64,000 bases of DNA from Gracilariopsis chorda (lineage: Eukaryota; Rhodophyta; Florideophyceae; Gracilariales; Gracilariaceae): NCBI GenBank assembly GCA_003194525.1, contig NBIV01000137.1, positions 154,830 to 218,829 on the forward strand, in the 5' to 3' direction. The position numbers and the translations under genes are program-made. Of this stretch, positions 1,546-64,000 are shown piece after piece (position 1 is the stretch's first letter; each line of letters begins with the position of its first letter). The notes beneath the pieces were generated by a model that was not told the DNA's origin, made no database searches, and saw only the letters and a program-made list of their open reading frames with translations.

Positions 1546-1547
1546 AG

Positions 1548-2030: not shown

Positions 2031-2048
2031 AACTTCTGCATCACCGCG

Positions 2049-4913: not shown

Positions 4914-4976
4914 ACCGGACATGCATCAACGCATCATTGCACATTATGAAGGCGCCTACGCTGATGCATGTCCGGT
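4914..4976. repeat. 15-bp perfect inverted repeat
   Basis: The arms ACCGGACATGCATCA (4914-4928) and its exact complement (4962-4976) flank a 33-nt spacer. No open frame depends on it. It could be the core of a small non-autonomous element or a structured RNA; I see no target duplication that would decide. Confidence 0.6.
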
Positions 4977-26722: not shown

Positions 26723-27069
26723 ATAATAGTTGCGCGCATGTGCGCCACGCGGGCGCGCCTTTTTGTTGTGGCCGCTGCTTTTGCGCGCGCGTGTGTACGT
26801 ACTGTACAGTGCGCGCACTTGTCCACCAGCGCCGCACGCACGGCGTAGATAAAAAAAAAGATACGATACGCCTTCACGCGCTGTGCACCAAGCGTCTACG
26901 CGTGCCTGTTTTTTCGTTCTTTCTCGCGCTTCGTCTACCGTCTCTTAAAGAAGGCGCTCGTCGCTGCCCGCTCGCTATTCGAACTGACGCACTGCTCCTT
27001 CCGTCGTCACTCTCAAGTACGCGATCGTTTGTTCCGCCAGCCCCCTCTCTCTCCCTCCCCGTCTGCGTA

Positions 27070-28419: not shown

Positions 28420-29764
28420 GTTTTTTTTATTTTTTTATTTTGTTATTACGTTGGTGTTGTAAAGGAAAGAGTTTTGTGTGTTTGTACGCTCGCTGCTCTG
28501 AAACGGAGCTAATGGCAGAGGGGGGTTTCCGGTATGAATTGACGGAAGATGGGTAGTAGAGGTAATGTACCGCTCGATTTGCGGAAAGAAAGAAAGAGCA
28601 GTTTGAAGAAATCATTGTTTTGTAAGAGGTGGAGGACGAAGGTATTGTTGGTAACGGTGAATGGGTGTGAGGAAATTAATTGTGTGGTTGGTGGGAAGCA
28701 ATGGTGGAGTGCAAGTGTTGGTACAGTATGTAATGCGCTTGGTATGATATGATAGCGCGGTAAGAGGCGCAAGTAAGGAGTTGTTCTTCGCGAAACAACT
28801 CATCACTGCGGCGCGGAAGCAGTTTTGCTTTTTGTTGTTTCTTCGCGCGTGCGAATTCAGCTGGCCACGCGCGCTTGTATGTTTTGGTTTGGCGAGCACC
28901 AAGAGGGTGCCCACGACGCGTGCAACCGGCGCTTTTGATTGGGCGACGCGCGCACGCTTTCTCCGCGCAGCCGCGCCGCGTTGCTGTGCTTTTTCTTTAC
29001 CTTCACGCTGTGGAGGCGCTTAAAAGGAGAGTTTTAAACGCGCGCCGCGCTTTTATTATTGCTGCTGCTCTCTGCTGCCGTTTTCTTCGACGCCGCTTTG
29101 GTTTGTTGACGCGATATTGCGGCGGCGCCATCGTGCAGCGCGGAGTGTTCGGCCGTGTGCACGCGCGGGCGCCCGCGTGCAACGCGTTTGTGCGAACGAC
29201 GGGGGTGAAAACCGATTTGAGCCGCTTCTGCAGCCGTCGGGTGCGGGCGGCTGCGAAATGACGCGCTTCCTTTTGCGTTTTCTTCTGCGCGCATTGTTGA
29301 CGGCGTCGCTCTTTCTGCTGCGCGCACGGATGCGCGGCGCGCCACAGCCGACGTGATGGACATGTGCGATGAAGAAAAGCTCTGTAACATATATATGTCG
29401 CGCACACAGCGATGCAAGCCTTACAGCGCGCCGCTTACAGAATGGCTAGTGACCACAATAAAGTGTGGCTCAGCCGTGTCCACGTTGAACAGCGCTGCGG
29501 GCGCACTTGGCCGACCAGCGCGGCGGGCGGCGAAAGCGTTTTACAGAACACGCAGCCTGTAAATCGACGGCGCGCAGCGCTCCGCCAGCCACCACAAGCG
29601 CACAGTCACACTCTCGGTCGCGTCGTGCCAACGTCGCGAGCAGACGAAGCGCACACCCCGCTACTGTCAGAGGGGCTCGCGTTGAGTAAGCCGCGCGCCA
29701 TTTCCGCCCTACCCCCCCCCCAACCCCCCACCCCCCCCACCTCCATAAGCGCCGCCCTGTGCCC
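28420..29764. other. Intergenic and 5' region of zinc-finger paralogue 2
   Basis: No supported gene. From about 28780 to 29700 the DNA is rich in GCGC/CGCG tetramers, like a CpG-rich promoter block. It ends in a C-rich tract (29712-29743). Short frames here reflect the composition. Confidence 0.5.
29712..29743 (-). promoter_or_regulatory. Poly-C/poly-G tract, candidate G-quadruplex, before paralogue 2
   Basis: Runs of 10, 6 and 8 C (29712-29721, 29724-29729, 29731-29738), then short C pairs, end about 22 bp before the ATG at 29765. The complement can form a G-quadruplex and the given strand an i-motif. If it is transcribed as 5' leader, the RNA is C-rich. This is a structural prediction only. 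Confidence 0.45.
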
Positions 29765-30757
29765 ATGACGCCGCACACCTCTCAACGAGGCGTTAATGCT
29801 TCATCGGCGCTTTCACCGCATCAACTTCATCACCACCGCACCGCCAATTCCTCCTCCCCGCCCCCGCCGCACCACCCCCCCGCCCATGTCGCCGCCGCCG
29901 CCGCCGCCCATGCTGACGCTGCGCACGCGCCCGCAAACGTCCGCGCACACACGGATAGCGCGTCGCCTGCATCCGCTCTCGCGGATGCTGACCAGTCCTG
30001 CTCGCCTCGCCAACAAGCGCACCAGCAACAAAAGCAGCAGCAACAACCGCAACAACCGCAACAACAACAACAACAACATGCTGCGTCGCGGGACGCCTCA
30101 CCCACCACTGCGGCTGTGCAAGGCGTCGCGCAACATGAAGCCGACAAAAAGGGAGCACACAGCTTAGGAGCCGCAATGGCTGCCGCCGCCGCCGCAGCCG
30201 CAGCCGCAGCAGCAACCGTAACCATGCATTTACCAACCATTCAACCCGCCTCCACGCCCCAATTAACACTAGCGCACCGTCCCGCGCTGCACAGCGCCGT
30301 AACAACTCAACCACCAGCTTCACCGATTCCAACTCTTTCTGCAATGCCACCCATGGTGTCTCCAATCCACAAGAAAAGCTCCTCCGCCGCCACATACATG
30401 TGTGACGTCGTCGGCTGTGGAAAGACGTTCAGTAAAAAGTTCAACCTCAAGGCGCATAAACGCGTGCACACCGGAGATGAGCCGTTTGTATGCAGTTATC
30501 CCACGTGTGGAAAACGCTTCAAGTGGAAGTCTAGTCTCACTTTTCACGAGGGTTTGCATCTCAATACGCCGGATGAACCCGCTCGCCAACCTCATTTGAC
30601 CGCTGCGGCCGCTACTGCTACTACCACCCCGTTACCGCTTTCTTCGGCTGCTACTAATGCTGCTGCTCATGTCACTGTTGAAGCGTCTGCGTTGCCCGCC
30701 TCGGCCGCGCTCGACGTTGTGCCGCCACCTGCTGTCAAGAAGCACGAAAAGGCGTAG
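29765..30757 (+). CDS. C2H2 zinc-finger protein, paralogue 2
   Basis: The product has 330 residues from ATG 29765. A Gln-rich run (about 85-105) and an Ala-rich run (about 140-152) precede two C2H2 fingers at about 211-264: CDVVGCGKTFSKKFNLKAHKRVH, linker TGDEPF, then CSYPTCGKRFKWKSSLTFHEGLH. The second finger is nearly the same as in paralogue 1 (KWRSSLSHHEGLH); the first differs more, so the DNA targets may differ. It is a likely transcription factor in the nucleus. Confidence 0.85.
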   Translation: MTPHTSQRGVNASSALSPHQLHHHRTANSSSPPPPHHPPAHVAAAAAAHADAAHAPANVRAHTDSASPASALADADQSCSPRQQAHQQQKQQQQPQQPQQQQQQHAASRDASPTTAAVQGVAQHEADKKGAHSLGAAMAAAAAAAAAAAATVTMHLPTIQPASTPQLTLAHRPALHSAVTTQPPASPIPTLSAMPPMVSPIHKKSSSAATYMCDVVGCGKTFSKKFNLKAHKRVHTGDEPFVCSYPTCGKRFKWKSSLTFHEGLHLNTPDEPARQPHLTAAAATATTTPLPLSSAATNAAAHVTVEASALPASAALDVVPPPAVKKHEKA

Positions 30758-31219
30758 CGCTTGTTTGATAATCTCATTTATGTGCTTTGGCTTGTTAGCT
30801 GTGGTATATGGCGCCGCTTGTTGTGGCGCTCGCACGACAGCCACACCACCATTTGTTTCGGCGCCTTTTGTTTAGCTTGCAGCTTTCGCTTCGGGCGGTG
30901 ACCAACTGCCACGTGCGTATCTATTATATTATTATTATTTTTTTTTTCCACTTCCAGCACGCTGGAAAACGGTGCAACTCATCTCATTCGCCTCCAATCG
31001 CTGCGAACGGGAGCGCGCCGCTTGTACATACAACTTGTCGTGTGCCTCGCTGCTGAAACGGCGACCCCTTTGCCCATGCCTCACGCATCTCGCATCTCGC
31101 ATCCTCAACCCACCCCGTCCCTCACCCGCAATGGAACGCTTCCCTAATACAATACCGTTGCATCTTATCTCCATTTGTCCCACCGCCGTTGTAACCATCC
31201 CCTCTTTCGCACCTGCATC
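30758..31219. other. Intergenic, 5' region of the secreted protein gene
   Basis: A T-rich patch (about 30925-30948) is followed by a pyrimidine-rich leader up to the ATG at 31220. No other feature is seen. Confidence 0.45.
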
Positions 31220-33049
31220 ATGTCCGCTTTCCGCCCGCTTCTTCTCGCCTTTCTCCTCCTTCCCCTCGCCATAGCTTCCTTCCTTCCCCCACGCACACGG
31301 CGCACGCCCTGTTGCCATGCCATCCCACCAGGTCTCACCTTCGACACCTGCGCTGACGTCCGTGGCTGCGCTGCAGGACGACACTGTCTCACCGCCGACA
31401 CCCTCTTCCCCTGTCCGCTAGGCCGCGTCTGCATCTGTTATCCAGTCCGTATCGAGCCGTGCACCTCCTCCGACCAATGCATCCAGGGTGAACGATGCGC
31501 CGCTCGCCCGTACGACCATCACCCCTTCTGCGTCAGTGAGCACGTCGTCGCGCTTGACCCCTCCTTCAAAGTCGTTGAGTCGTGTTGCTTTACCGACTTT
31601 CCGATATCGCCTCCCGTCGTGGAGAAGCCTCGTCCGGATCGTCCGCCAACCGTTAGCAAGCCTGACAACCCTGATCGCCCGCCTTCTAGAACGCCCACCC
31701 CTACGCCGTCGCCCACGCCGAAACGCGCACTTGTCACCGCCCCGCCGCCTCGCCCCGCTGCCAGTCCGCGCCCGAGTCGCACTTCTCGCCCGAGTAAGAC
31801 GCCGCGTCCGTCGAGGACCTCCACACCCCGTCCGAATCCAACGCCCACTTCACAACCATCTCGAAAGCCTCGTCCATCCCCGTCAAGCTCTCCTCGACCG
31901 CGTCCAACGCCGTCTCGCGAACCTTCCATCACAGCGGTTGCACCGCAGCCTCGTCCCTCGCCAAAGCCGCAGCCGCAGCGAACGAGACCCCCCAAGACAA
32001 GCGGTGGCTTGGCAGGTGATGAATGTCGCCGTCAGGATGATTGTCTCTCGTATCGCAAGTGTATTGATCGACGCACCAAGCTTGAATGTACTACTGCCGA
32101 TTGCGTCTGTGTTGGCTCCCGTGTTTGTGTTTGTAACGACCAATGCACGGATGGTGAATTGTGCTCAGGAGCGCCTGGAAGGGCGTATTGTTTCTCCCCT
32201 CACGTCCTTGAGAAGATTTCTTGGGCGCAGTCTTTGCCTTGTCCATTTGCCAATCCTAACAATGCTACAAACACTCCCAAACCGAAGCCGTCTGGTTCGG
32301 ATGAAGGGCTTACTGGTGCTGTTTGCAACACTGATAGAAATTGTCGCGGAAAGAGAAGATGCGTTGTTGCCGGAGGTGACACTTGCGCTACTGAGGATCT
32401 TTTGTGCAAGGGTCGTCTAGCACCTTGTGTTGGTGCGGAAAGCTGTTACTGCTACCAAGAGGAATCATGCAATTGTTCGAATGATTGTGTTGATGGTGAG
32501 GTGTGTACTACCACCGTGCTGGGTCGCATCTGTATTTCTCCGTTCCTACCGGAGAACGATAACCTGCTGCAGACGATTACTTGTCCCGCGGGCGCTTCTG
32601 CAGATGATCCCATTCTTATTGTCAACCTGGTTGCACCGGAGAACCTCGACGAAACTGAGGGCGATTCAAACAGTTCTGATGATCAGCAAGGCGGAAATGA
32701 AGATGAGGATGATGGGGTTTGTGTTGATGCCCGTGCCTTGAAGCATTTGGCCGCTCACGAACTCGTGTTCCCTACCCACAGGACTGCTCGCGTGCTTTGC
32801 GACCAGAATGGCAGCTGTGCTACACCTGGACATGTTGTGTTGTACAAGGCAACTGCCATGATGATGAAGAGTTATTGTGCGCTTGTTGGATGCACACATC
32901 GCGTCATGAAGGTGAACAGTCCCAAGCTGAAGCGCGCTATTCGAATTCCCACCAATACCGATAACCTGCATTTCACTGCGTTCGCAGCCAGATACCAAAC
33001 AACATTTGAAGAACTCGCCCTCACCGCTATCGTGCACGTAGGACTGTGA
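31220..33049 (+). CDS. Secreted Cys-rich modular protein with Pro/Arg/Ser/Thr-rich hinge
   Basis: The product has 609 residues from ATG 31220. Residues 1-19 (MSAFRPLLLAFLLLPLAIA) are a signal peptide. Module 1 (about 30-110) is Cys-rich. It is followed by a long hinge with repeated PRPS/TPRP units (about 125-265), then two more Cys modules (about 268-335 and 355-450). All three share the order C-x(4-6)-C-x5-C ... CxC ... C-x(2-3)-C-x-x-GE-x-C and end in a Ser/Phe-containing motif before an uncharged strand. An acidic stretch and a His-rich C-terminal part without homology follow. The hinge resembles wall glycoproteins and would be a glycosylation target. I do not recognise the family; an extracellular-matrix or cell-surface role is inferred. 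Confidence 0.7.
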   Translation: MSAFRPLLLAFLLLPLAIASFLPPRTRRTPCCHAIPPGLTFDTCADVRGCAAGRHCLTADTLFPCPLGRVCICYPVRIEPCTSSDQCIQGERCAARPYDHHPFCVSEHVVALDPSFKVVESCCFTDFPISPPVVEKPRPDRPPTVSKPDNPDRPPSRTPTPTPSPTPKRALVTAPPPRPAASPRPSRTSRPSKTPRPSRTSTPRPNPTPTSQPSRKPRPSPSSSPRPRPTPSREPSITAVAPQPRPSPKPQPQRTRPPKTSGGLAGDECRRQDDCLSYRKCIDRRTKLECTTADCVCVGSRVCVCNDQCTDGELCSGAPGRAYCFSPHVLEKISWAQSLPCPFANPNNATNTPKPKPSGSDEGLTGAVCNTDRNCRGKRRCVVAGGDTCATEDLLCKGRLAPCVGAESCYCYQEESCNCSNDCVDGEVCTTTVLGRICISPFLPENDNLLQTITCPAGASADDPILIVNLVAPENLDETEGDSNSSDDQQGGNEDEDDGVCVDARALKHLAAHELVFPTHRTARVLCDQNGSCATPGHVVLYKATAMMMKSYCALVGCTHRVMKVNSPKLKRAIRIPTNTDNLHFTAFAARYQTTFEELALTAIVHVGL

Positions 33050-37690: not shown

Positions 37691-39165
37691 TCACAGCCCG
37701 TGATATTCCTTCTCGTACTGCTCATACGACTCCACTTCCACGCTCAAGTACCTCGACGCTTCTCCGTCTCTAGAACCGCTCGATCTGCTCATATCTGAGC
37801 TTCGTCCCTGAGATGATGTTCTACAAGAAGAACCACAGTTCATCATTTCCCTGTACAATCGTTTGCGTCTTCTTTCCTTGTATCGTCTCGCCGCAAACTC
37901 GGCCAGCACCCCCCCAACCAAAAAAGCTAATGCAATCGTAACAAATGTCGCTCCGATTGCAACTAGATTTCGTTTCACCTCGCATTGTGAAACGTACACC
38001 TCTGCCGCTGCCGCTTTAGCACGCGTTCCGTTCATGTTTGTAGTCATGCGAACAACAGAGCCCACATACCTTGACGATCCGATTGAAATCAATTCGATGC
38101 CCTTGATAGCCAGAGGTAGCACCGTCAGCACATCACTTAGAAGCGCGTAGAGAAGCATCTTTGCTGTGCTCACGTCGGCTAACATCGCAATCGGCACTAG
38201 GTTCAGGCATAGAGGGAACAACAGAATCGTCAGACTTGACGGACTTAGAGCCTCTGTACTTTGTTGAGTGTAACTGATTGCCTTGCCAACAGCCCTTTGA
38301 ACCGCGATGTTGTCGTCCAGAAACACTGCCTTGTATACCGCTGGTTCAGCAGTACCGCGATGGCTCACCATGATGGTGGTAGTATCGTTGCGTGTTCGAT
38401 GGTTTGCATCTCTCTCTGCCACTTTCATCAACCCATAACCCCCACCTCGACTCAAGATCTCTACCAGGTAGTGACGCTTGAATTCACCTAGATGCTTCTC
38501 TTTCTTCTCGTTTGTAATGCCTACGTTCAGATACCACACCTTGTCCAGACGATATGCTCCTAGAACATTCACCCTGCACTTCTCGGTTGTAGTTACGTGT
38601 GGAAAGTCAAGAATGGCATCCGCGTGTGTGAAATTTGTGTTCGCCTCCCTAGCAATTTCCTCAGCATGATCGTAGATATGCCTGTTGAACTTTCTCACCA
38701 CGTCGTGCAAATCACTTTCTCTCTTGCCCTCCGGAACCAAGTCGGTGAGACATAACGTGGTTGGTGCCACCTCGAACCTCAGTTCCACTTGATCAACAGC
38801 GGCATTTTTCCAAACTTGATCGTCGGCATTGCAGACGGCCACTAAGGGATCACTACTGCGTCGTCGCGACACCAGTCTGTTGGTTTGCTCTTTGAGAATA
38901 CTTTTTTCCACGGATTCAATCATGTCCAAAGCACGGTCGGAGTTTTCCACAAATCCATCAACGGCCTTGAGCACCTTGTTCATGGGTGCCTGATTTGAAT
39001 GGTAAAAGTAGCGATACTTGTACCATTTCACGGGGAAGGGGAGGGACGGGCGGATGGCGTCGGACTGGAACCTGGGCTAGGGGTGGGTGTACCGCAGTTA
39101 TGCGCCACACAGCATTGCGCTGCAAGCAAAACGAGGCAGAGGCGGGTGATGCGACGGCGAAACAT
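37691..39165 (-). CDS. Multi-spanning membrane protein, paralogue 1 (frame break near the 5' end)
   Basis: A 446-codon frame (37691-39031) encodes a mostly extracellular N-terminal half and a C-terminal membrane block: LTILLFPLCLNLVPIAMLA, LLYALLSDVLTVLPLAIKGIELISIG and VAIGATFVTIALAFLVGGVLAEF. A basic cytosolic tail (RRYKERRRKRLYREMM) and Ser-rich end follow. That frame has no ATG near its start. In another frame an ATG at 39165 begins a signal peptide (MFRRRITRLCLVLLAAQCCVA) and a Thr/Pro/Ser stretch that runs up to it. One base change in the C-rich run near 39035 would link them. The same layout and length (about 490) occur in paralogue 2 at 49.5 kb. The family is unrecognised. Confidence 0.7.
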
Positions 39166-49163: not shown

Positions 49164-49498
49164 CACGCGTAGGTAATTACCGTTGGTGGGTCTACCCTTG
49201 TACCCAACACACAGCACACGTCAGATATTTTTGTGGGGGGAGCACGCGCAGCTTCGCGCGTTTACAGCGAGTGCACGAGCACGCATCTCAACAATTGCCA
49301 ACGAGGCGTAAGTCGTCCGCTTCCCAGCGAGGCGACCGCCCACACAGACGCATAAAAGTCTTGCTCCACCATACCACCCATTACTCTCTACTCTCACGTC
49401 CCGCCACACTTCCCAAACGCCCCCCCCCCTGGCCACTGCCGCCCCGCCAATGGAGCACGACCTTTTCTCGCTTTCGTTGGGCACTCCCCGCGCGCCCC

Positions 49499-50979
49499 AT
49501 GGCGTTGTTCATCGCACCTTTTATCCAACTTGTTTCCATATTCGTGCTTACCATTTGTGTCAACTGTTCTGTTACACCGCCTCCATACGCCGCAAATCTC
49601 TCCGTTAATATAGCCCCGTGGGCTCAGGGACGACTTTTTGCAATCTCTGACAAGGCCCCGTTTGCCACGCATATGCAACATGAGCCGCACTATCGCACCG
49701 CATTGAACCTACTCACTGACTTCTTCACGCGTGTCGAACGTGATGTAACTGATTCGAGACGACAGTCAAAGTCCTCGAACAGCGTTCGCACTCGTCCTTG
49801 CAACACTGATCCACAGAGGTGGCGTCGTGCCACCGAGTTCGCTAGCAGACATCGGGGATGGCCAGTAAACTCTCCACATTCCTCCGAGGTTTGCGTCACC
49901 GATTATTACGGGCCGCCTTTGGGGTATACGCTCTCACTGCCGCACATGCGACATCTCCTTTCACAGGGTTTCGAAGCGCTTGAACGTAATGCATATCGCA
50001 TCATGCTAGACGCTGTCGGCAACTGGACACACGCCACCTCAGGCCGCTTAACAACCTTTGAGTGGACCTCGCAAGCGTGCGAGCTCACCAATTATGGCGC
50101 TGTTCGCCTACATGGAAAGTGGTGGCCGTCGGTGGGAATCACTAATAAGCCGCCCTATCAGCACCTTCCAGACGGGCAACGCATTGTCATTGCCGAGGCA
50201 CACCGTTTGGAAAATGCAACAGTTGTTCCGGCGCTAATGACCTTACCGATAAACCCTGGAACCGGTACTGTACATAATGTCACGGATCGCGCCACCACGA
50301 TAATCACTATTTGGGGTGGTGCTAGTGATCCGTCTTCAGCGTATTTGCCCGGTACGGCTGAACGTAATGTCGCATTGCTGGCCGCTCGACAAAAGGGTGA
50401 ACATTTTGCACAACAGATGGAAGACGTTCTTCTTCCTTCCAACATAGCCATTTTGGCCTTCCCGCTCGCTCTTAATCTTGTACCGGTGGCGCTTATTACT
50501 GACTGTGACCAGTGGAGTGCGGTTTTGTACATTTTATTCAGTGATGTACTTACGGCGCTTCCAATGCTCATAAAGGGAATTGAACTTGTAACTATTGGTA
50601 AGGCTCGTTTTGTGCAGGTTGTTACTCGTATGGGGGATACCCTTGATCAGGCCACCATATCTGCAGAGATGACCGTAGCTGTTTGTCGAATGAGACAGGA
50701 TGCGGGTACAATTGGTGTTGTATTCATTTGTATTGCTTGTGCGGCAATGGTTTTTCGGTGTTGCGCTCGAAGTTTTTGGCACGCTTGCTGGTTTGGAGGA
50801 ACAAGGAACGACGCCGAATGAAAGAAGAGGAACAACTTTATTTTGAACAGTTTGAACGCGTGAGGTGGAAACATGAGAAGGGCTTTTATCAATATGATGA
50901 CGCTGGTTACTGGAGTACGCCACATTACGTAAACGGTCATTCGCTTAGACCACGTCATGATCTTTGGACGCCCATGTGA
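49499..50979 (+). CDS. Multi-spanning membrane protein, paralogue 2 (frame break near the 3' end)
   Basis: From ATG 49499 a signal peptide (MALFIAPFIQLVSIFVLTICVNC) leads a luminal/extracellular domain with several Asn-x-Ser/Thr sites. The same membrane block as paralogue 1 follows: IAILAFPLALNLVPVALI and VLYILFSDVLTALPMLIKGIELVTIG. The frame stops at 50821. The basic tail expected from paralogue 1 (LLVWRNKERRRMKEEEQ...YFEQFERVRW) is found in the next frame to 50979, so one base in the T-rich segment near 50755-50785 is out of place. A real pseudogene or an indel error are both possible. No domain family is recognised. Confidence 0.7.
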
Positions 50980-53726: not shown

Positions 53727-54534
53727 TGTGGTGCAATGCCCCAAAGGGGAAAAACACCGAAAGACGTCCGGGATCTTCCTCTCACGAGGTGAACCCAGTT
53801 GGCTAGAGCCCTCCCAGAGGTGTCATGGCGAAGCCGGTTTGTAAGACCAGGGACACCTGTCGCGACTCGCGCAGGGAGGTGAAGGCGAAGAATCGGTATC
53901 CGCGTGAGCGGGGTGTGATCCTCAGTAGAGGTATGTTTCCACGTAAGTGGGGGTGTGTGAGCGGATGCGCACACGGGGGCCGCGGATAGCGGGAGGTGCT
54001 ACCCTAAAAAGGGGAAAGAGGAAGGACGAGGTGGGTCGCGAGAGCGACAAGTAGATACGGCAATGCCGGTGGACAGGGCTCCCTATACAGGGCGAAACAC
54101 CAATATGATTGGAACAATTAGTACTCCCAATGATGGGTCTCCTTTAGATGTGCAAGGGGGGTGAACTTCCGTACACTACGGTGCTTCCCTCCAAGGAGGA
54201 GTTGAGAACACGCGGAGGCGGTAAAGCTCAGAGCCAATTCCCCAGGTTGGGGTCCCTTGTTGGGGAAGGTTTACTGGTGCGACGGCAGTGCGCCGTCGCA
54301 CTAAGTACTAGCTTCCCAGAAATGGGTGTGAAAATAATAAATAAAATTAACTAAAATACTCCACATTCCGTGGCAACATCCACTACTGTGGCCAACCGCC
54401 AATTGACCCAAAACCGTGTCCCACGTGTCCATACCCACCATTGTGGGGCGTAGTTCATATACACACTACACAATCGATAATATCGGGAAAGCGTTCAAGT
54501 ACCCAGAATCCCTCCCTGAGGGCGTTGCACTTCA
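53727..54534 (-). repeat. 3' LTR of the Ty3/gypsy element
   Basis: The 808-bp LTR is bounded by imperfect inverted ends: TGTGGTGCAATGCC at the outer end and TGAAGTGCAACGCC (minus strand) at the inner end, so it begins TG and ends CA. The inner end abuts a polypurine tract. An AT-rich patch at 54328-54358 is the only one in the LTR and may hold the TATA or poly(A) signal. A 10-bp hairpin (54277-54301) and at least 18 CC...GG mini-hairpins lie inside. The second LTR is outside the window, so the ends rest on the inverted termini and the tract. Confidence 0.7.
54277..54301. repeat. 10-bp perfect hairpin in the LTR
   Basis: GTGCGACGGC and its complement enclose AGTGC. It is the longest perfect stem noticed in this LTR. 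Confidence 0.7.
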
Positions 54535-54550
54535 TATCCCCCCCCTTAAG
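54535..54550 (-). other. Polypurine tract
   Basis: On the minus strand CTTAAGGGGGGGGATA directly precedes the LTR start TGAAG. This is the expected primer site for plus-strand DNA synthesis of the element. Confidence 0.65.
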
Positions 54551-54591
54551 ACGGGAAAACGACCGCGGACGCGGAGGATTCCCAGACGAAA

Positions 54592-56379
54592 ATGGGTGAT
54601 AAAAGCGCGTGCTTTGACTCCGGTTCTCCGGTAAATCCCTCTGCACCAGAGTCACCAAGCACACAAACGACAACAACAGCCACCCTCCAAAAGGGAAAAA
54701 TGAACGACGACAACAATATCAACAACCACAGCCAACCGCCGAGACTTCTCGGGCGATACACCACCGGTTTCCGGTCAGTTCCCCTGCCTCAGGGCGATCG
54801 AAATCCGGTACAACCGGGGAATATGGCTGCGGCAGCCGACCATCCCTTCGCACTACCACCTTCGGTGGTGTCCTCCGGAACCACTCCGGTGTCCAACTGG
54901 CCAACTTACAACACCCTGGTGGGGCTCAATCCGATGAATCGGAATCACGCGTCGCGCCTGCGCCTTGCCCCGTGGTTTCACCTGGTCGCCGTCCTCAATG
55001 AGGGATTGGTCACCGCTTATGCGGATGGTTCAGACACCCTTCCGGGGGATCTGCCCAGAGCAGTCACCACATCGTGGGATTGGCGTCACCGGATTGCGAT
55101 TCCGCGTCACCACCTCCGAAGAAACTCGGGCGAGACCGTCACTGCGGCACAGACCGCGCTGACGCGCATGGCGTATCAACGGCAGAGCCGGGCTCCATTC
55201 GATGTACCGGTCCCACCGGAGTTTGGCTTCGACGTTAGCTACTTCCGCACTCGCGGGGAGATTGGGTACGGCGAGAACCTGTTCCGCCTCGAGACCCTCG
55301 CTTGGAGGAATTTCCCCGCAGCGCGGCAAGAGGCCCTTTGCTGGGAGCGACCGATTATTCGGGCGGAGTTCAGGTACCTTCCCCGGCAATACCGGTCCAA
55401 CTTTCTCCAAAACTTCATCCGCTACGAGCGGCGTTGGCGATCCCGATTCGGGTATTTTATCCCGTATCAGAACGTGGAGATAGAGCGGATTGCGCCGCCT
55501 CACCGACTAGGTCGGTATGTAGCACTCCCCGAGTGGTGGCGCTTCCATGAAGCCTGCCGGGGGTGCTACATAGAACTCCCGCCGGTACTTACGTACCTCG
55601 GTTCGCTGCTCATGCAGGATCCCCGGTCGGGGTTGTGGTCCGTGGTGGTTACGGAGTGGGCGGCTCGCAGTGCGGCTTATATCCTCAACGAGGCGTACGA
55701 CCAGTATCGTCTCTGGTTCCTTCAACCGCGTGTGCGGGCAGCGATCCGAAACCTGGATCTTCGCATCCCCCTTGGGGGCCAGGCCAACAATGAAGAGGTC
55801 CTCCAATTACTTGGGTACATCGACAGCGTTAGCTGGAGTGAGGTCCCGCGGGAGCAAAGCGGTCGTCTTAATGGCGGTAGCGGTAACACCGGTGGTCCGG
55901 GACTCGGTAGAAACACCGCCCTTGCGGGGGATTTTATCTACTTCGACCCCTGGGAGTTCCGGGAAATTTCCTCCGAGGAGGCGCGCGAGCTTCGCGATAC
56001 GCCCCGGCATGTGCCGGAAGACCACCCGGTGGGGTACGTCGATTCCGACGGCTACTACCGCGCATACGGCGGGGATGACCCAATGGTCGATAACGAACCG
56101 GAAGAACCCCGGGAGATGGACGTAGAGGAAACCGGCGCTAGCGCGGAAGCTTTCCCAGAGGGGGCATCTCCGGCCGAGCCGGCTGCTGACCCTTCGGCGG
56201 CAAGTGCCGGACCTTCAATCCCCAGCGGGGTGACGGCGAATGAAAACGAAATCATCGCACGTTTTCTCCGGGGTGCCGGTCTTAGCGCTGCCGAGGTATC
56301 GGGGGATGTCACCACCATGGCGGACGCGTTGGCCTACCGCCTCGCTGGTGGTTACGCCCCGGACGATGGGGGTGAGTGA
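54592..56379 (+). CDS. Long antisense ORF inside the LTR element, unknown product
   Basis: This intact 595-residue frame starts at ATG 54592 on the strand opposite gag-pol, between the polypurine tract and the chromodomain. The N-terminus (1-90) is Ser/Thr/Asn/Pro-rich. The central part (about 120-430) is rich in Trp, Tyr and Arg with many predicted strands and helices (for example RSRFGYFIPYQNVEIERI and WWRFHEACRGCYIELP). The C-terminus is acidic with Ala/Pro runs. I recognise no family. AATAAA follows at 56467-56472 on the same strand, and GTGAGT overlaps the stop region. It is the only long frame of the element without a break, which suggests it is used. Plant elements with antisense ORFs in this position are known. 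Confidence 0.6.
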   Translation: MGDKSACFDSGSPVNPSAPESPSTQTTTTATLQKGKMNDDNNINNHSQPPRLLGRYTTGFRSVPLPQGDRNPVQPGNMAAAADHPFALPPSVVSSGTTPVSNWPTYNTLVGLNPMNRNHASRLRLAPWFHLVAVLNEGLVTAYADGSDTLPGDLPRAVTTSWDWRHRIAIPRHHLRRNSGETVTAAQTALTRMAYQRQSRAPFDVPVPPEFGFDVSYFRTRGEIGYGENLFRLETLAWRNFPAARQEALCWERPIIRAEFRYLPRQYRSNFLQNFIRYERRWRSRFGYFIPYQNVEIERIAPPHRLGRYVALPEWWRFHEACRGCYIELPPVLTYLGSLLMQDPRSGLWSVVVTEWAARSAAYILNEAYDQYRLWFLQPRVRAAIRNLDLRIPLGGQANNEEVLQLLGYIDSVSWSEVPREQSGRLNGGSGNTGGPGLGRNTALAGDFIYFDPWEFREISSEEARELRDTPRHVPEDHPVGYVDSDGYYRAYGGDDPMVDNEPEEPREMDVEETGASAEAFPEGASPAEPAADPSAASAGPSIPSGVTANENEIIARFLRGAGLSAAEVSGDVTTMADALAYRLAGGYAPDDGGE

Positions 56380-56466
56380 AACCTCTGGTCCAGTTTCCTG
56401 GTTCCTCTTTCCCTGGCTATGCCAGTTAGTGTAGTGTAGTATTGTGGGGAGCTAGCTGCTCCCCTG

Positions 56467-56472
56467 AATAAA
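56467..56472 (+). terminator. Poly(A) signal downstream of the antisense ORF
   Basis: AATAAA about 90 bp after the antisense ORF stop, on the same strand. Confidence 0.4.
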
Positions 56473-56570
56473 CTTTCCCGTTTAGAACGGTGCTTCTCGG
56501 TTGAGTTCCCCGTCTTCGACGGACTTTGCCTTGTTATCCTTTCCTTTCGCTCTCCGCTCGCGCGGCAACG

Positions 56571-57320
56571 TTACCCAACTTGGGCATTGACCAGCGTGGC
56601 TGGGGCTGCAGTTCCCGTCTGACAGTGGTATCGCAGAACCTGCGACCGTGGGAGGTGTTCAATTGGCTCCCACGTATCCCCACTGGGGTCGTACCCGTAC
56701 CAGCGGACGCGGTATTGTAGAATACCATCCTGGTTCCAGGTGTGTCCGACAAGTCGGTCTACTACGAACTCTCGTTCGTAGACCTGCCGGCCGTGCCGGG
56801 TGGTGGTTGTACTCCCTTGCGAGGGCTGCCCGCTGTGCGGTATAATGTCCCTTAGCAGGGTGTTCGGCGATAACTCCGACGTTGCCGTGCGCTGTCCTAG
56901 TGGCCGCTGCTCATGCGGGAAAATATCCCTCAAGAGGGTGTGTGGTGTCACGGTTTTCCCCGGCAAGTCATTCCCCATTGGGGTGTCGTTGTTCCCGTCT
57001 TCACGGTAGGCCAGGCGAACCGCCCGTCGGCGGGGGACTTGGGCTCCGCCTTCGCGGTTGAGCTCACGAACCGCGAGTTTGCGGGAAGATGACCGCTCCT
57101 GCGGGATCGTCATTTCCACAATCCCCTGGGGGGTCCCGTGCGACACGGTGATTGGGTGGCAAACCGCCTCCCTGCCAGGCGCACGAGCACTTTGCACCAT
57201 ACGTTCCGGCGACGCCGTGGTGTCCCCGGCTACTGACGGGTTGCCTGGGGCTAACTCCGGTACACCGGTATTTTGGTCAAAATTCCCCTTTGGGGGGTTC
57301 TGGGCAGGTGCGGATGACAC
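56571..57320 (-). pseudogene. Chromodomain-containing C-terminus of integrase
   Basis: This 249-codon frame is low-complexity until its end, where YEREFVVDRLVGHTWNQDG...YRVRWYGYDPSGDTWEPIEHL forms a chromodomain with the aromatic Y/W/Y positions and WEP motif. In chromoviruses this domain guides integration to marked chromatin. It is in a different frame from the integrase, and no start near it is convincing, so it was part of the pol polyprotein. Confidence 0.7.
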
Positions 57321-57415
57321 CCTTTTCAGAGGAATTGCCGCTGAGCGCAGTGCACCATCTCCGTGAGGAGGAGCAGCGTCCGGTACGACCGGTTTCGAGC
57401 GTGCGATGGCGCGCG

Positions 57416-59980
57416 TTATTCCCGAGTTTCTCGGTTCTTCGCCGCAGCGATGCGGGGTTGGCGCAAATTATTCCCCGTAGCGGGGGCTTTGATTCCGTCA
57501 ACGACGGGAGGCGTTTCCGGTGCTTGCAAGCCAGGGCTTAAAGCTTCGACTGCAGCTTGGCCGCCTTTTTCCCCAAGAGGGGTGTGGGTATTTCCCAGCG
57601 GCGCTGGTGTATCTGGGCGCCTCTTCTCCCCGGGGCGCGGGTCTGATCGACCTGATTGAACCGCTTCCGCGGGGACTTCCGCCAACGGCGGCTTCGAGGC
57701 ATCGGGCGATTGCCTTTCCGCTGCTGCGGTCTTGGAGTGAGGCTTCTCGTTCTCCCGTGACAAACGGTGTATTTGCCGCTTTTGCGGGGCCTGCGCGTCC
57801 GGTTCCTGTTGCACAGCACTGCCCGGGAACGGGGGATTAGTGTCGCGTGACATACTCCGTGCTCCACGGTCAGTGTTACGTATGTTACGGTGTGTTTCCC
57901 GTTGCGACGGTGATATCGTTTCTCGAAAACGAGTGTTCTCCTCCCCCTCCTTAGACGGAGCGGCGGGATAAGAGATAACATTCCCCGCCTGGCGGGTATA
58001 AATGCGCGCCAGTGGGGCAGATGTGGTAAGGGCGGGCGCTGAGGGGCCCGAATTACCCGGCTGAGCCGGTGAGTCCGACAGAGTCGGTAGGTCTGAGAGT
58101 CCCCGGCTGGGGTGTGGTAGTACCGTAGGTCTAGTACTCCCGGATTGTTCCGGTGTAGCGAAGTCCGTAGAAACGGGGTTGCCTGGATCCAGGATTACCT
58201 CTGACGAGGGAGGAGGGGCAAGGACAACACGATCACGGGAAATCCGTTCGTGCGTGTCCCCCATCTCTACCACGACAGTGTCGGTGTTAACAGAGATCAC
58301 CTTGAAGGGTCCATCCGCCACAGGCGAGAGTTTGTGACGCTTCTCCCGTTCCGGGTTGTAGTATTCCTTCCTGATGAAGACGTAGTTATTTGCCCGAATC
58401 GGGGACGGTTTTCCTCGCACACGAGCGTCAAAATCCCGCTTGTAAGCGGCTTGGGCCCGTGCCATAGACTTCCGCGCCGCGGGGACCAGCTTGGAAAGCC
58501 ATTGCTTCCATTGATGCCGGTAGATACCCACAGATGGGAAATTGTCCAAGGTAGCTTGGGGTCCCAGCGCCACAGGCGGGGGTGTTCTAGATAGAACTAA
58601 CTCGAATGGCGAAACTCCGGTAGTCCGGTGTACCTGCGTATTGTACGCGTAGGTTACCGCATCAGCGTAGAGATCCCAATTCTTTGGGTGGTCAGCGACG
58701 TAGGAACGTAACGCCGCGAGTAACATCCGGTTAAACCGTTCAACTTGCCCATTACACTGGGGGTGGTAGGTAGTCGTGAACAAGTTCTTGACATCCAGGA
58801 TGCGACAAACATCCTGGAAGAACTTGCTCACGAACTGCTTCCCGTTGTCAGAGAGCACCTCTACAGGGGGACCGTAGACAAAAATCCAGTGCGTCACCAG
58901 AGCCTGGGCCACCGTGAGAGCGGTTATCCTCCGAAGAGGGACAGTCCGTACCAGCTTAGAAAAGCGGTCGGTAATGACAAGTAGAAACTTGTTTCCACGT
59001 TTCGTGGTGAGTAATGGTCCGAGAATATCGATCGCAATAAACTCGAGCGGCGCCCTTGCGGGGAATAGTTTCATCTTCTTCGCATTTTTGCGGAGTTTGA
59101 CGCGATTCTTCGCGCATTCGCTACAAAACCGCACAGTTGCGTAGCAATCCACCGCCATTGCGGGCCAATAGAAATCCCTTTGCAGGGTTAGGTAGAGTTT
59201 CCTCCCACCTGGGTGACCTCCAATGGGGGCGTAGTGTGATAGATGTAACACCCGCGATTGCAGGGAATGTGGTACCACAATCTGTGGGCGGGCTTCGACC
59301 TTTCTTACGAGGTAGCCTTTGTCGTTTACCCCGAAAGGGAGATCTTCACCACCGTTGATACGGGCACGAATTCTCGTACAGAATGGGTCGCCGAATTGTT
59401 CTCGGATCATTTCTTCCGGTGATACCGGTACAAAGTTTCCCGGTAACGGGTTCTCAGATCCATCTCGCGATGCGAGTAGTTCGTCAAAGTCAGCATCCTC
59501 GTCCCCGTTTTCTGGCCCAGCCTCGACGGCACATTCCGGATCATCCAGGTCTATGGCCATGAAACATGGGACTTCATCATCCTCCGTTGGGAGTGCTTCC
59601 CCACTTGTGGGTAACCGCAATAAAGCGTCGGCCTGGGTGTTCTGCGCACCCTTTTTATAAATGACTTGAAAGTCATATTCCGCGAGGCGGAGTCTCCAGC
59701 GCATGAGGCGTCCCGACGGGTCGGAGATATTCATCAACCACCTCAATGAGGAATGATCCGTGTATACGGTGAAGTGAATTCCCATAAGGTAGGGGCGCAG
59801 AGTGGTCATCGCCCATACGACGGCGAGGCACTTTTTCTCCGATACGGAGTAGTTCCGCTCATGAACATTGAGCGAACGTGACCAATAACCAATTGGATGC
59901 CGTTCCCCCTCGGGGGTGGTTTGAAAAAGAGCACACCGGACTTGGTAGTCGGTCGAGTCCGTATCTACGGAGTATGGCAA
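57416..59980 (-). pseudogene. RNase H and integrase region of pol
   Basis: The 854-codon frame begins inside RNase H (YSVDTDSTD, SEKKCLAVVWA, YTDHSSLRWL, ADALLRL). It continues into integrase: an HHCC zinc block (HLSHYAPIGGHPGG...CSEC), then the DDE core with AIDILGPL, LSDNGKQF and GQVERFNR. The catalytic D, D and E are all present. After the core a Pro/Ser/Arg-rich tail of about 280 residues runs to the stop. The 5' boundary is set by a frame change from the RT frame near 60070, next to runs of G and C. Confidence 0.85.
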
Positions 59981-60027
59981 CCCAAGTTTTGGGAGATGTA
60001 GGATTGGTGCTGATGTGACAGCCTCCT

Positions 60028-61203
60028 TTAAGGAGTTAAAAGCTTCCGATTGCTCGGGCGTAAATGTTCCCAGTTTTGGGGGTTCCCCTTTCGCAACAAC
60101 GCGTTCAGGGGCGCTGCAGTATCCGAAAAGTTCGGGATAAACCGTCGATAGACGTTGACCAGTCCCAGAAAGGAGCGCAGTTCCGTTTGAGTACGGGGTT
60201 CTTTCGCCTCAACGAGGGATTTGACTCGAGCTTTCTCGATTGCTAAACGTCCAGGACGGATAATGTGACCCCGATACTTCACAGTATCTGTGAAAAACTC
60301 GCATTTCCTCAACTTGAGGGTAATTCCCGCATCGCGGAGTACGGTGAGCACGTCTCGGACGTGAGTGAGATGGTCTTCCAACGAGTGGGAGAAGATGATG
60401 ATATCATCACGGTAGACCAGACAACTCCGCCACTTAAAGCGGTTGAGTAGAATATCTACTGCACGCTGAAAGGTGGCGGGGGCGTTGGTTAACCCAAATG
60501 GCATCCGCTTGAAGCGGTACGTTCCTGCATGGCAGGTGAATGCGGTTTTGTCGCGATCCTCCTGTCTGACTGGTACTTGCCAATATCCCCAATTGGAATC
60601 AAGGGCCGTGAACACGGTGGCGTCTCCAAGGGAGTCAATGCACTCGTCCATACGAGGGATGGGGTACGTGTCCCTAACAGTCACGGCATTGAGCCGGCGG
60701 TAGTCGACACAGAACCTCCAGGTTCCGTCGGCCTTTAAAGCCAGTACAACTGGGGATGCCCAGGGTGATTGAGCGGGCTCAATCACACCTGCGCGGAGCA
60801 TCTTGTCCACCTGGGACTGCTCCTCTTCCCGAGCTTTCGGACCTGCCCTGTAAGGGGGTTGTGCAACCGGTCGCGCACCGGGGATTAAATCGATCCGGAG
60901 TTCCGTTGCATTAATCTCGCCAAGCGAGCCATCCCACATTGTGGTGAATTCCCGTAACATAGTACGGAGTTTGTCGCGGTGCGACTCTGGCACGTGGCTG
61001 AAGTCCAGCGCTTCAAGTGCTTTTTTCCGGATCAATCCGGTCATTGCTCGATGGAGCATTGTCCTGTGGAACAGGTGTGGTTCGCAATTCCGAGTTACTC
61101 GGTATGTTCGGCGCTGAAGTAGCGGTTTCCTCCCCCTCCTTAGACTTGACGTCTTCGGACGGCGGGGCGAACTCCTCAGAAGAGGTGGTAACTCCGAGTA
61201 CAT
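60028..61203 (-). pseudogene. Reverse transcriptase region of pol
   Basis: The 391-codon frame holds all RT blocks: IEPAQSPWASPVVLALKADG, FCVDYRRLNAVT, FTALDSNWGYWQVPV, FKRMPFGLTNAPATFQR, CLVYRDDIIIFS (catalytic YxDD written as YRDD) and FLGLVNVYRRFIPNFS. The DNA behind the IEPAQS codons forms a 10-bp inverted repeat with a 2-nt loop. The frame ends shortly after the connection region, where RNase H continues in another frame. Confidence 0.88.
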
Positions 61204-61493
61204 CGGCGGCTGTCATCTTTGTTGGCAGCATTCCCATAGGATGGGGGTTACACTCCCAATTACTTGGTGTTTGACCAGATACTGGGGGTGTTTGCCAAGG
61301 TTGGCAACCAATATCCGGAAAGGGACATCCGGGAAATGGAGACAATTCCATTAGCCAGCGCCAGCTGGGATTTCTCCTACAATGAGGCGAGGGGTTGTAT
61401 AACCCGAAGACCGTGTTGACGGGAATTTACCTGCACCAAGACTTGGGACTCAGCCGGTATAGAAACCGAGGCAGCGACGCGGAGCTTGGTGGA

Positions 61494-62128
61494 CTAGCGG
61501 GACGCGGGCGGTGGTTCCTGCGCAGCAGGGAGCGGAACTTGTTTCCGAGAGGACCGCTTTAGCGGGCGGCGAACAATCGGAACCGACGATCCGTCGTCAA
61601 GTTCTACACGCCTGAGGCGGGGCCTGATTGCGTCGACAAATCTGTCGCAGTAATCACATCCCAGTATGACTGGTGCTGCCAATGAACGGCAAACGATGAA
61701 GTCCAACTTCACCACGGAGGTACCAGGTCTCACGACGAGGTCCACTGTGCCCACCGTTTGTAACGGGTTGTTATTCGCATCCGAAATGTCGGGGACCGCG
61801 TCAGAGCGGATACGAGACCGCACAAGCGGGGGTAACAATGATTCCACAACGAAGTTGGGCCTGCACCTGTATCCAGGACGGTGAGAAACCTCACCATAAA
61901 CTGAAGGTCAAGGCCAAGGTCGGCATAGACCTTATAATTGCGCTTGGCCAAGACCAAGACTCTACCGGGAATCCGGGGATTTTTACTCCGTATCCACGGG
62001 CGACGCAACACACCGAGGTGCGCAGAGTCCGCGTCAGCGGTGTCTTTCCTCGAGAGGACTTTCACCGGGGAGCGAGGCGAGGACGCCTCGGGCGCCAACA
62101 GCCTCGTTCTTGAGGACGCCTCTCCCAA
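61494..62128 (-). pseudogene. Retropepsin-like protease region
   Basis: One frame (61730-62128) contains the active site LTVLDTGAGPTSLW; another (61494-61847) carries the later strand motif VILGCDYCDRFVDAI. The two overlap at about 61850, so the protease is split by a frame change. Ty3-type proteases have this DTGA and ILG pair. Confidence 0.7.
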
Positions 62129-62338
62129 AGGGGAGACTCCCTCAGTTAGTTTTCCGCCTTCGGCGGTGGGTTGGTTTCCTCGACAACGAGTGCTTCATCC
62201 CGTTGACGGGGGTTTCTATCCGCATAAGCGGGGGTTGCAACGGATGGTTTGCGTGATCTCCCGAACCGGGGTGTATGAAGCTTGCCGCGCACGCGGGGTC
62301 TGTGGTAGGGCGTGGGAAAAGTCCGTTTTAGCACGGAG

Positions 62339-63928
62339 TTAGGAAGCCGTCGGGACGGAACGTTTCTCCTCTGGAGTGAGGGCCTCATAATTTGCCACCA
62401 CCTTGGCCATATCCTTCAGTGAACAAATACACTGAGGAGAGGTATGGCCATGGGCATAGCACAGGTGGCAAATGAGAGCCAGCACCGCGACACGCGGATT
62501 ATTATTCCGAGTATCGGAGAAGCGAACCGCAGGGCGGGTGTCAGTCCATCCAGGCCGTTGATAACGGGATTGACCGTTTGAAAACGGGAGTCGTTGGGGT
62601 TGAACCCGACTGTTACCACCGTATAGAACGGAATCTTCTGTTTCCCGTATCATGGGTCATCGCCGTCGTTGACGGTAAGTCACTGGTGGGTATCGACACA
62701 CCATCCCCCTGCGCTAAATGCACGGTATCAAATCCCTGTCCAGGTTCCCATCCGCGGTGAGCGGGAGAGAGGAAGCTTCGCTTTCCAGCAACAACGCCTT
62801 GGCGGATTTAGACCGATTGTTCGGAGTTCTTGCACGAAGTGCATCCCCTTCCGCTCGAGCGTGTTGGACCAGCTCGAGGTAGGTGATCCTTCGCTTGTCC
62901 TCCCGATAACGGGTAAACTAAACTCCGGATTGCCGGGTCAAGACCATCAATGAACATGGTACTGCGCTCCCCAGCGGGGTATACGTTACCACATCTGTGG
63001 AAAGCCTTGTTAAGGCGCACCGAGTAATCGGTCTCAGTCTCTCCAGCACGCTGGCGTGTATCTCGCAAAGCGAGGATAGCCTGCTGAATAGCGGTGTTGG
63101 TGGCGTAGGAGCGCAGAAGATACTGCACAGCCTCCGGCCAGCAAGTAACTCCTCCCTCGGAGGCGCGAGAAGATCCTCTGACAGAGGTGTATTGGTCCTC
63201 CGCCACTCCCCGTAAGAAATACGGTAAAGCCAAATAGGCTTGTCCCTCATTCATACCGAGGATATCGGCCTCCGCTACAAAGCGGGATAGGAAATCCAGT
63301 ACTAGGACTGGGTCCTCTCCAGTAAAATACTGGTTGCGGAGCGAGAGCTGGCATTCGCTTAGTGCATTCTCGCACTTTTCCCGTACCACGGGGCGTACGT
63401 CCAAGTGACGAATCTTCAAGCCGGTAGTACCGGTATGATAAAAGCTTCCGGTAATCCGGGTTTGTCGGTTTCAATTCCCGGAGACCGGGGTGTCTTCTCC
63501 ACTTCTGGCGGGTTCGGACCACACCTTCAGTGGCCCGATGACCGCTTCGAGCGGGAGGAGTAGCCTCGCTTCTCGTCCTCCGAGTCGGATTCCGAGGAGC
63601 TCGACTAACCGAATGATTTCGGGTGAGTCCGGCGATGCCGAAGAATCGGAGTCCGAATATTTTCGTGGTGTTTCCGTCGGTGACGGCGTTTCTTCTTCCA
63701 GCAAGCTGGTCGTTGTGCGATGCCTCGTTGACCGGATCACCCGGGATGGTTTGTCCATGAGGACGAACTGCTCCAGCGTCTCCAGGCGGGCACCAATCCG
63801 ATCAAATCGGGCTTCAACTCCTTCGATGAAGGCGCGGGTTGTCCCAAACTCTCCAACACGGAGTTGACGTCAGACCGTAAAATACGGAGCTCCTCGGCGA
63901 CCTCCTTTACGGGGGTTGCCGAGACCAC
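62339..63928 (-). pseudogene. Gag region
   Basis: Frames at 63737-63928 and 63471-63758 give a charged N-terminal part. The 62808-63419 frame holds a gag-like helical domain (ALPYFLRGVAEDQYTS...QAILALRDTRQRAGETETDYSVRLNKAF). The 62339-62653 frame ends with a CCHC zinc knuckle CHLCYAHGHTSPQC (C-x2-C-x4-H-x4-C). An in-frame TGA at 63471 and a frame change near 62.7 kb interrupt it. Gag coats the element RNA; the knuckle binds it. Confidence 0.7.
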
Positions 63929-64000
63929 CTCTTGGAGGGATTTTAGTTCCCCTACAAGGGTGTCATGGGCGGTCCACAGAGCGCGGACCTGGGATTCCAG

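What the first reader, a model, noticed from the sequence alone, without database searches (positions are those of the whole stretch)
53739..64000. Whole retrotransposon patterned with CC...GG mini-hairpins about every two helical turns
In 53,739-54,447 I find 18 perfect units CCNN-loop(3-5)-N'N'GG. With equal base frequencies about 0.5 would be expected (710 x 3/4096), so enrichment exceeds 30-fold before GC correction. Stems vary freely (CCGC, CCTC, CCAC, CCCT, CCCA, CCAA, CCGT, CCGG) with exact compensating complements. Start-to-start spacing of 19-22 bp recurs (53900/53920/53939, 54081/54100, 54169/54188, 54361/54380, 54856/54875, 56830/56849, 62199/62220). The first unit sits 12 bp inside the LTR edge, and none is obvious just outside. 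Units lie in the LTR, the antisense ORF, RT, integrase and gag without visible insertions in conserved motifs. Possible causes: selection for RNA structure (packaging, silencing escape), protein binding every 20 bp, or a mutational process such as template switching that perfects quasi-palindromes.
Basis: partly seen in the sequence, partly recalled or inferred. Interest (0 to 1): 0.93.

Follow-up and report, generated by a model that had tools for sequence, protein, structure and literature searches.

The report
Retrotransposon genome written in mini-hairpins
A family of "jumping" elements in a red seaweed has hundreds of tiny hairpin-forming sequences threaded through its whole length, genes included, and comparison of related elements suggests that evolution keeps them there, for a purpose not yet known.

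Summary
CCNN-loop(3-5)-N'N'GG occurs 206 times in 53739-64000 (18.8 in dinucleotide shuffles) and at chance level (31 vs 29.9) in the rest of the window. Synonymous-codon shuffles do not explain it. It begins at the LTR edge. In the same genome, probably Gracilariopsis chorda, the three related Ty3/Gypsy chromovirus families sampled have it; the few Copia, endonuclease-domain (LINE-like) and DNA-transposon loci sampled (4 each) and a 601-bp piece of another Gypsy clade do not. Families only 37-42% identical at third codon positions share 8-11 hairpins at exactly the same place (0.2-0.3 expected), and pairs changed on both sides still match in 49% of cases (control 28%). Selection on a folded strand is the best reading; a templating mutational process is less likely but not excluded. 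There is no helical periodicity, only a preferred 5-11-nt linker. Strand and molecule remain open. The proposed role, dispersed binding sites for the element's own Gag/nucleocapsid, is inference. Nine searches of the held papers showed nothing like it for LTR retrotransposons.

The parts
53727..54534 (-). 3' LTR of the element (808 bp, TG..CA; the element is inverted in the window)
   Evidence: outer edge shared by 9 and inner edge by 6 of the 10 LTR loci cut out, one of the 10 being the window itself; ends read; 21 CC-hairpins, 26 per kb
53739..64000 (.). mini-hairpin array: 206 CCNN-loop3-5-N'N'GG units; 353 non-overlapping perfect hairpins of all kinds (shuffles 130), 45% of the sequence
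   Evidence: the array runs to the contig end at 64000
54538..54545 (-). run of 8 C on + (8 G in element sense) next to the 3' LTR, probable polypurine tract
   Evidence: sequence; the function is inference
54592..56379 (+). 595-aa ORF antisense to pol, no Pfam family; 35 hairpins (19.6 per kb)
56571..57320 (-). ORF with chromodomain (C-terminal end of integrase)
   Evidence: PF00385 E=1.2e-10
57416..59980 (-). RNase H and integrase ORF; 48 hairpins (18.7 per kb)
   Evidence: PF17917, PF17919, PF17921, PF00665
60028..61203 (-). reverse transcriptase ORF; 16 hairpins (13.6 per kb, lowest of the six parts counted)
   Evidence: PF00078 E=1.3e-34
61857..61873 (-). protease-like motif DTGAG
   Evidence: seen by eye in translation; motif recalled
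62429..62470 (-). CCHC zinc-knuckle-like motif of a nucleocapsid (CHLCYAHGHTSPQC)
   Evidence: seen by eye in translation; motif recalled
62808..63419 (-). ORF taken as gag remnant by its position; the surrounding frame has stops
   Evidence: no Pfam hit

Best explanation
One lineage of Ty3/Gypsy chromovirus-like retrotransposons in this red alga carries a genome-long array of short self-folding hairpins: stem 4-5 bp opening with CC:GG, loop 3-5 nt, linkers of 5-11 nt preferred. Selection acting on a folded single strand keeps them, through codon choice as well as in non-coding parts. The units are individually replaceable, so many turn over while density is kept. Most likely job (inferred, not shown): repeated low-affinity binding or condensation sites for the element's own Gag/nucleocapsid on genomic RNA (or the cDNA), that is, dispersed packaging and particle-assembly signals. 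Shown: density, boundary, restriction among the sampled elements, encoding through synonymous codons, same-place conservation. Supported but modest: compensation and stem constraint. Inferred: molecule, strand, reader. I put selected structure at about 0.75 and the Gag/NC role, given that, at about 0.5.
For: Excess only inside the element. Present in three families 67-73% identical in protein; no CC-hairpin excess in the sampled Copia (4), endonuclease-domain LINE-like (4) and Harbinger/MULE-type (4) loci or in one 601-bp piece of another Gypsy clade. Not explained by codon or dinucleotide use. Same-place CC hairpins: families A/B 11, A/C 8, B/C 9, against 0.28, 0.28, 0.20 when both ORFs are synonymously shuffled (max 2 of 200 shuffles). 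Where both sides of a pair changed between families, 66 of 135 are Watson-Crick against 103 of 365 for wrong partners, p=3e-5. Third-position identity at same-amino-acid codons is 0.49-0.58 in stems and 0.37-0.42 outside hairpins. Fixed versus singleton differences in family A: stem/outside odds ratio 0.60, p=0.035. Folding z-scores -1.1 to -1.8 on both strands of A, B and C; -0.2 to 0.3 for Copia, LINE/DNA elements and host sequence. Small family dialects: stems open CC in A and B, CC or TCC in C. Flanks of hairpins are strand-asymmetric in family A (in the window copy GG is followed by A in 48% against 33% of other GG, p=3e-4), and among one-mismatch hairpins family A leans to G-U over A-C in the sense strand (33/48.0 vs 28/57.1 of expectation in the window copy, 11/15.0 vs 3/22.0 in L018). 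A CCHC knuckle motif is present. For yeast Ty3 a review says that RNA packaging depended on UTR or POL sequences (PMC4974528, passage).
Against: One-mismatch G-U hairpins are nowhere above shuffled expectation, and B and C lean the other way (G-U 8/15.1 and 6/13.8, A-C 10/14.7 and 10/15.1), so there is no consistent RNA signature. Flank asymmetry is absent in B and C, and the GG-A effect is not significant in the second family-A copy tested (L018, p=0.56). The fixed/singleton test loses significance with broader hairpin definitions (odds ratio 0.79, p=0.21; then 1.18, p=0.35). Of six stem-versus-outside third-position tests two have p<0.05, and ordered family pairs count shared changes twice. 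In same-place hairpins only 2 of 44, 2 of 32 and 3 of 36 pairs are compensatory. Low stem divergence between subfamilies A1 and A2 is partly ascertainment. Most hairpins are not place-conserved between families. The same review says that nt 429-4979 of Ty3 are dispensable for retrotransposition when proteins come in trans (PMC4974528, passage), so an array through pol is not a general Gypsy need. No binding or probing data.
Confidence: 0.4

Rival explanations
1. Strand insulation: each strand folds on itself locally so that sense and antisense transcripts (the element has an antisense ORF) anneal poorly into long dsRNA, which lowers exposure to RNA interference.
For: Stems are strictly Watson-Crick, so both strands fold about equally (mean z -1.77/-1.51 in A, -1.43/-1.74 in B, -1.06/-1.34 in C); no consistent strand lean among one-mismatch hairpins; a 595-aa antisense ORF with relatives in Gracilariales.
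Against: Does not need the CC:GG stem base or its dialects; 4-5-bp stems are weak against full-length annealing; flank asymmetry in family A; no small-RNA or antisense-transcript data.
Confidence: 0.2
2. Mutational process: this lineage's reverse transcriptase switches templates at quasi-palindromes and perfects them, so hairpins accumulate without function.
For: Perfect Watson-Crick arms, one-mismatch forms not in excess; high turnover between families; found so far in one RT lineage only; 11 of the 12 hairpins not shared by A1 and A2 differ by 3-8 bases, one by a single base.
Against: Strong CC:GG signature at the stem base; same-place hairpins, many with identical stems, across families far diverged at third positions; stems more conserved than other synonymous sites. 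The 12 non-shared hairpins all start within alignment columns 3444-4383, which suggests subfamily replacement rather than events at each hairpin.
Confidence: 0.2
3. DNA-level role: cruciform-prone or single-stranded DNA hairpins act on the cDNA or the integrated copy (integration complex, chromatin, recombination).
For: Strict Watson-Crick pairing; no flank asymmetry in B and C; the array reaches to 12 bp from the LTR end.
Against: Arms of 4-5 bp make poor cruciforms (general knowledge); no CC-hairpin excess in the four DNA-transposon loci sampled, though one of them, L074, has more 4-bp stems of any sequence than shuffles (60 vs 36.5, sd 5.9); flank asymmetry in A.
Confidence: 0.12
4. Chance, base composition or codon use.
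For: The element is GC-richer (0.57) than the rest of the window (0.50).
Against: Dinucleotide shuffles, synonymous shuffles with matched dinucleotides and the GC-similar host stretch 24001-32000 (3 vs 8.1 expected) do not give it.
Confidence: 0.01

Closest known systems
Ty3/Gypsy (Metaviridae) chromoviruses
   Same: TG..CA LTR, RT-RNase H-integrase order, integrase zinc domain, chromodomain, CCHC knuckle motif
   Different: the genome-long mini-hairpin array; an antisense 595-aa ORF between the 3' LTR and pol
Multiple dispersed packaging signals of ssRNA viruses (PMC6281560, PMC4751978, PMC7793301: seen only as search listings with abstract starts)
   Same: many degenerate short stem-loops or contact sites spread through the genome, sharing a motif rather than a sequence
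   Different: signature in the stem base; about 20 CC units per kb; an LTR retrotransposon; no binding shown here
Genome-scale ordered RNA structure of RNA viruses (recalled; listing only)
   Same: genome-wide excess of folding, low MFE z-scores, carried by codon choice
   Different: here made of uniform 11-13-nt hairpins with a CC:GG base and about equal on both strands
Palindromic repeats of organelle genomes, such as double-hairpin elements (recalled, nothing looked up)
   Same: many short GC-rich hairpins
   Different: those are inserted mobile units of similar sequence; here stems vary freely and lie in open reading frames

Membership tests
Ty3/Gypsy chromovirus | RT before RNase H and integrase in pol | tested here: met
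   PF00078 in 60028-61203(-), then RT_RNaseH, Integrase_H2C2 and rve in 57416-59980(-)
Ty3/Gypsy chromovirus | chromodomain at the integrase C-terminus | tested here: met
   PF00385 E=1.2e-10 in 56571-57320(-); in this copy a separate ORF downstream of the integrase ORF
Ty3/Gypsy chromovirus | LTRs with TG..CA ends | tested here: met
   53727-54534 shared with other genome copies; the 5' LTR of this copy lies beyond the contig end and was not seen
dispersed packaging signals | many stem-loops with a shared degenerate motif | tested here: met
   206 CC units in 10.3 kb, 353 hairpins in all
dispersed packaging signals | conserved by selection in related genomes | tested here: met
   same-place hairpins 11, 8, 9 vs 0.2-0.3; 66 of 135 vs 103 of 365; modest effect, one host genome only, most units turn over
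dispersed packaging signals | bound by the capsid or nucleocapsid protein | not testable with these tools
   needs binding assays
genome-scale ordered RNA structure | genome-wide MFE lower than in shuffles | tested here: met
   mean z -1.77 in 26 segments of A; -1.43 and -1.06 in 9 each of B and C
genome-scale ordered RNA structure | sense-RNA signature such as tolerated G-U pairs | tested here: inconclusive
   family A leans to G-U over A-C (33/48.0 vs 28/57.1), B and C lean the other way; none above expectation

The most novel reading that the evidence does not exclude
Probability: 0.3. Interest if true: 0.92.

Novelty: new variant of a known kind. Interest (0 to 1): 0.74.

Why it matters
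[quoted passage not shown] A lineage with hundreds of near-uniform hairpins, beside relatives in the same nucleus that seem to lack them, gives a natural contrast for asking what genome-wide RNA structure is for. If instead the RT makes the hairpins, it would be an unusual mutational engine. Either way it is testable by probing, binding and comparison of Gracilariales genomes.

Tried and rejected
Helical-turn periodicity: no significant spectral peak. RNA G-U signature: the mismatch excesses looked like register shifts of real hairpins; after masking these, one-mismatch forms were mostly below expectation and the strand lean differed between families. Some rows used loci in antisense orientation (orientation fixed from then on). 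The first family-A alignment was invalid because loci lay in mixed orientation and was redone. Lower stem divergence between A1 and A2 is partly ascertainment, so I used fixed/singleton, same-place and third-position tests instead. Relatives outside the genome: a viral contigs and a genome-contig scan with the single protein found none; scans with alignment A1 (the query plus 10 of the 120 listed hits) gave 1 and 10 loci. None of these 11 has the CC pattern: L084 5 vs 7.3 expected; the highest is L092, 10 vs 4.0, without the sharp loop 3-5 peak. Nine of the 11 do have somewhat more 4-bp stems of any sequence than their shuffles, at least 1.2-fold (L092 166 vs 96.2), which I did not pursue. Red-algal DNA other than this genome was not reached. 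Structure prediction of the antisense ORF was switched off. Literature searches; of the papers I saw passages of PMC4974528 and otherwise listings only.
Full report
WHAT WAS CLAIMED AND WHAT IS THERE. The finding says that an LTR retrotransposon at 53739-64000 is patterned with CCNN-loop(3-5)-N'N'GG units. It is. I count 206 in that stretch against 18.8 in dinucleotide shuffles, and 31 against 29.9 in the other 53.7 kb. Per 1-kb bin the element has 13-27 units in each of the ten bins from 54 kb on; the 53 bins before 53 kb have 0-4 each. The excess begins at the LTR edge: LTR 53727-54534, first unit 53739, nearest outside 53087.

ANATOMY. The element is inverted in the window and runs off the contig end. 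It is a Ty3/Gypsy chromovirus by domain order and chromodomain. Between its 3' LTR and pol lies a 595-aa ORF on the opposite strand, with no Pfam family and four database relatives, two of them named: Gracilariopsis chorda and Gracilaria domingensis. This copy's gag region has in-frame stops. The LTR-end probe gave 40 full-length matches at 99-100% identity, the window's own included; only 40 of 1769 candidates were scored, so this is a lower bound. The host is probably Gracilariopsis chorda: the named relative P0122 lies on a contig of 445473 bases, exactly the length of contig C30 of this genome. That is one coincidence, not a formal identification.

THE UNIT. Perfect 4-bp stems of any sequence are in excess for loops 1-6 and at background for loops of 9 and more. 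A non-overlapping parse gives 353 hairpins against 130 in shuffles, 45% of the sequence; stems are mostly 4 (209) or 5 bp (119), loops mostly 3 (144) or 4 (140); the first two 5' stem bases are C in 77% and 69%. Linkers of 5-11 nt are preferred (141 observed, about 94 by random placement; 40% of linkers, against 9% in the sparser parse of shuffled sequence) and 0-4 nt avoided (41 observed, about 86), with no long-range period. Density is highest in the LTR (26 per kb) and lowest in the RT ORF (13.6), as expected if protein constraint limits it.

CONTROLS. Synonymous shuffles give means of 2.9-8.7 CC units, and 3.6-9.4 with matched dinucleotides, where 21-58 are seen; the ten ORF stretches tested come from three families (5 A, 2 B, 3 C) and none of the 125 shuffles per stretch reached the observed value. 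RNA folding energy is lower than shuffles on both strands in A, B and C and not in Copia, LINE/DNA elements or host.

WHO HAS IT. The two RT searches listed 106 and 150 matches; 30 of each were cut out. These 60 loci (family A 30, B 7, C 23; many near-identical, so three families rather than 60 tests) are all enriched: 10-21-fold, 11-20-fold and 5-11-fold. Copia: 1, 0, 0, 0 units against 0.7-2.2 (4 of 150 listed matches). Endonuclease-domain (PF14529) places, probably LINEs: 3, 3, 3, 6 against 1.4, 1.4, 1.1, 4.1 (4 of 26 listed; three share one hit score and have nearly the same counts). DNA-transposon places: 1, 0, 2, 2 against 1.1-1.7 (4 of 261 listed). One of these last, L074, has more 4-bp stems of any sequence than shuffles (60 vs 36.5, sd 5.9), without CC bias. 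A 601-bp piece of another Gypsy clade: 0 against 0.18, and all stems 7 against 8.0; it is small, so weak evidence. Other Gypsy clades of this genome were not reached. Of 11 loci from other collections none has the CC pattern, though nine have at least 1.2-fold more 4-bp stems than shuffles.

SELECTION OR MUTATION. Families A, B and C are 67-73% identical in protein and 37-42% at third positions. Yet 11, 8 and 9 CC hairpins sit at exactly the same place (0.28, 0.28, 0.20 expected with both ORFs synonymously shuffled), some with identical stems and changed loops, a few with exchanged pairs (2 of 44, 2 of 32, 3 of 36 pairs). Over all CC hairpins, pairs changed on both sides are Watson-Crick in 66 of 135 cases against 103 of 365 for wrong partners (p=3e-5; ordered family pairs, so shared changes count twice). 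Third positions at same-amino-acid codons are more conserved in stems (0.49-0.58) than outside (0.37-0.42), individually significant in 2 of 6 comparisons; loops (0.36-0.52) are in none. Within family A the fixed/singleton test gives odds ratio 0.60, p=0.035 for CC stems but 0.79 (p=0.21) and 1.18 (p=0.35) for broader definitions. Together this favours selection for having such hairpins, with turnover of individual units. A hairpin-perfecting RT is the main alternative: it would also give strict Watson-Crick arms, but it does not predict the CC:GG base, place conservation or stem constraint.

WHICH MOLECULE. One-mismatch G-U hairpins are not in excess in any family; relative to A-C mismatches family A leans to G-U in the sense strand, B and C the other way. 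Flanks are strand-asymmetric in family A, more clearly in the window copy than in L018, but not in B or C. So sense RNA in family A has some support, and RNA, both RNA strands, or single-stranded cDNA remain possible.

MECHANISM. I commit, with modest confidence, to dispersed binding sites for the element's own Gag/nucleocapsid. The reasons are restriction to one lineage among the elements sampled, confinement to the element up to the LTR edge, bead-like spacing, a shared motif with freely varying stem bases, small family dialects (TCC in C) and a CCHC knuckle motif. This step is inference. Strand insulation against dsRNA is the second choice.

NOVELTY. Dispersed packaging signals and genome-scale RNA structure are known kinds. 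An array this dense and uniform in an LTR retrotransposon I did not find in nine searches of the held open-access library, which lacks most subscription journals; I judged by listings, not by reading the papers.

Noticed in passing
54592-56379 (+): 595-aa ORF antisense to pol, no Pfam family; the four relatives found (45-58% identity) are in Gracilariopsis chorda, Gracilaria domingensis and two unnamed records; function unknown.
   Followed up: partly
37691-39031 (-) and 49271-50821 (+): Two ORFs on opposite strands encode proteins with closely similar C-terminal stretches (LNLVP..., LSDVLTxLPxxIKGIEL; by eye); look like paralogous membrane proteins.
   Followed up: no
3870-4658 (-) and 16760-17305 (-): ORFs with RNase H-like stretches (by eye, motif recalled) that look like LINE remnants.
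   Followed up: no
26740-28419 (+) and 29759-30757 (+): Two neighbouring ORFs with C2H2 zinc-finger-like ends and long alanine or glutamine runs (by eye).
   Followed up: no
L046-L070 (family C): Hairpins of family C open with CC or TC (TCC..GGA) rather than CC alone: 27 and 23 of 121 units in L062.
   Followed up: partly
family A alignment columns 3444-4383: The 12 hairpins that differ between subfamilies A1 and A2 all start in one stretch of the alignment, which hints at subfamily replacement or recombination there.
   Followed up: no
L074: A Harbinger-type place has more 4-bp stems of any sequence than shuffles (60 vs 36.5, sd 5.9), mostly A/T-opened, without CC bias.
   Followed up: no
L084 (Moorena MAG contig WTKN01000225.1): A bacterial MAG contig encodes a Ty3/Gypsy pol 43% identical to this one, probably eukaryotic contamination.
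   Followed up: no
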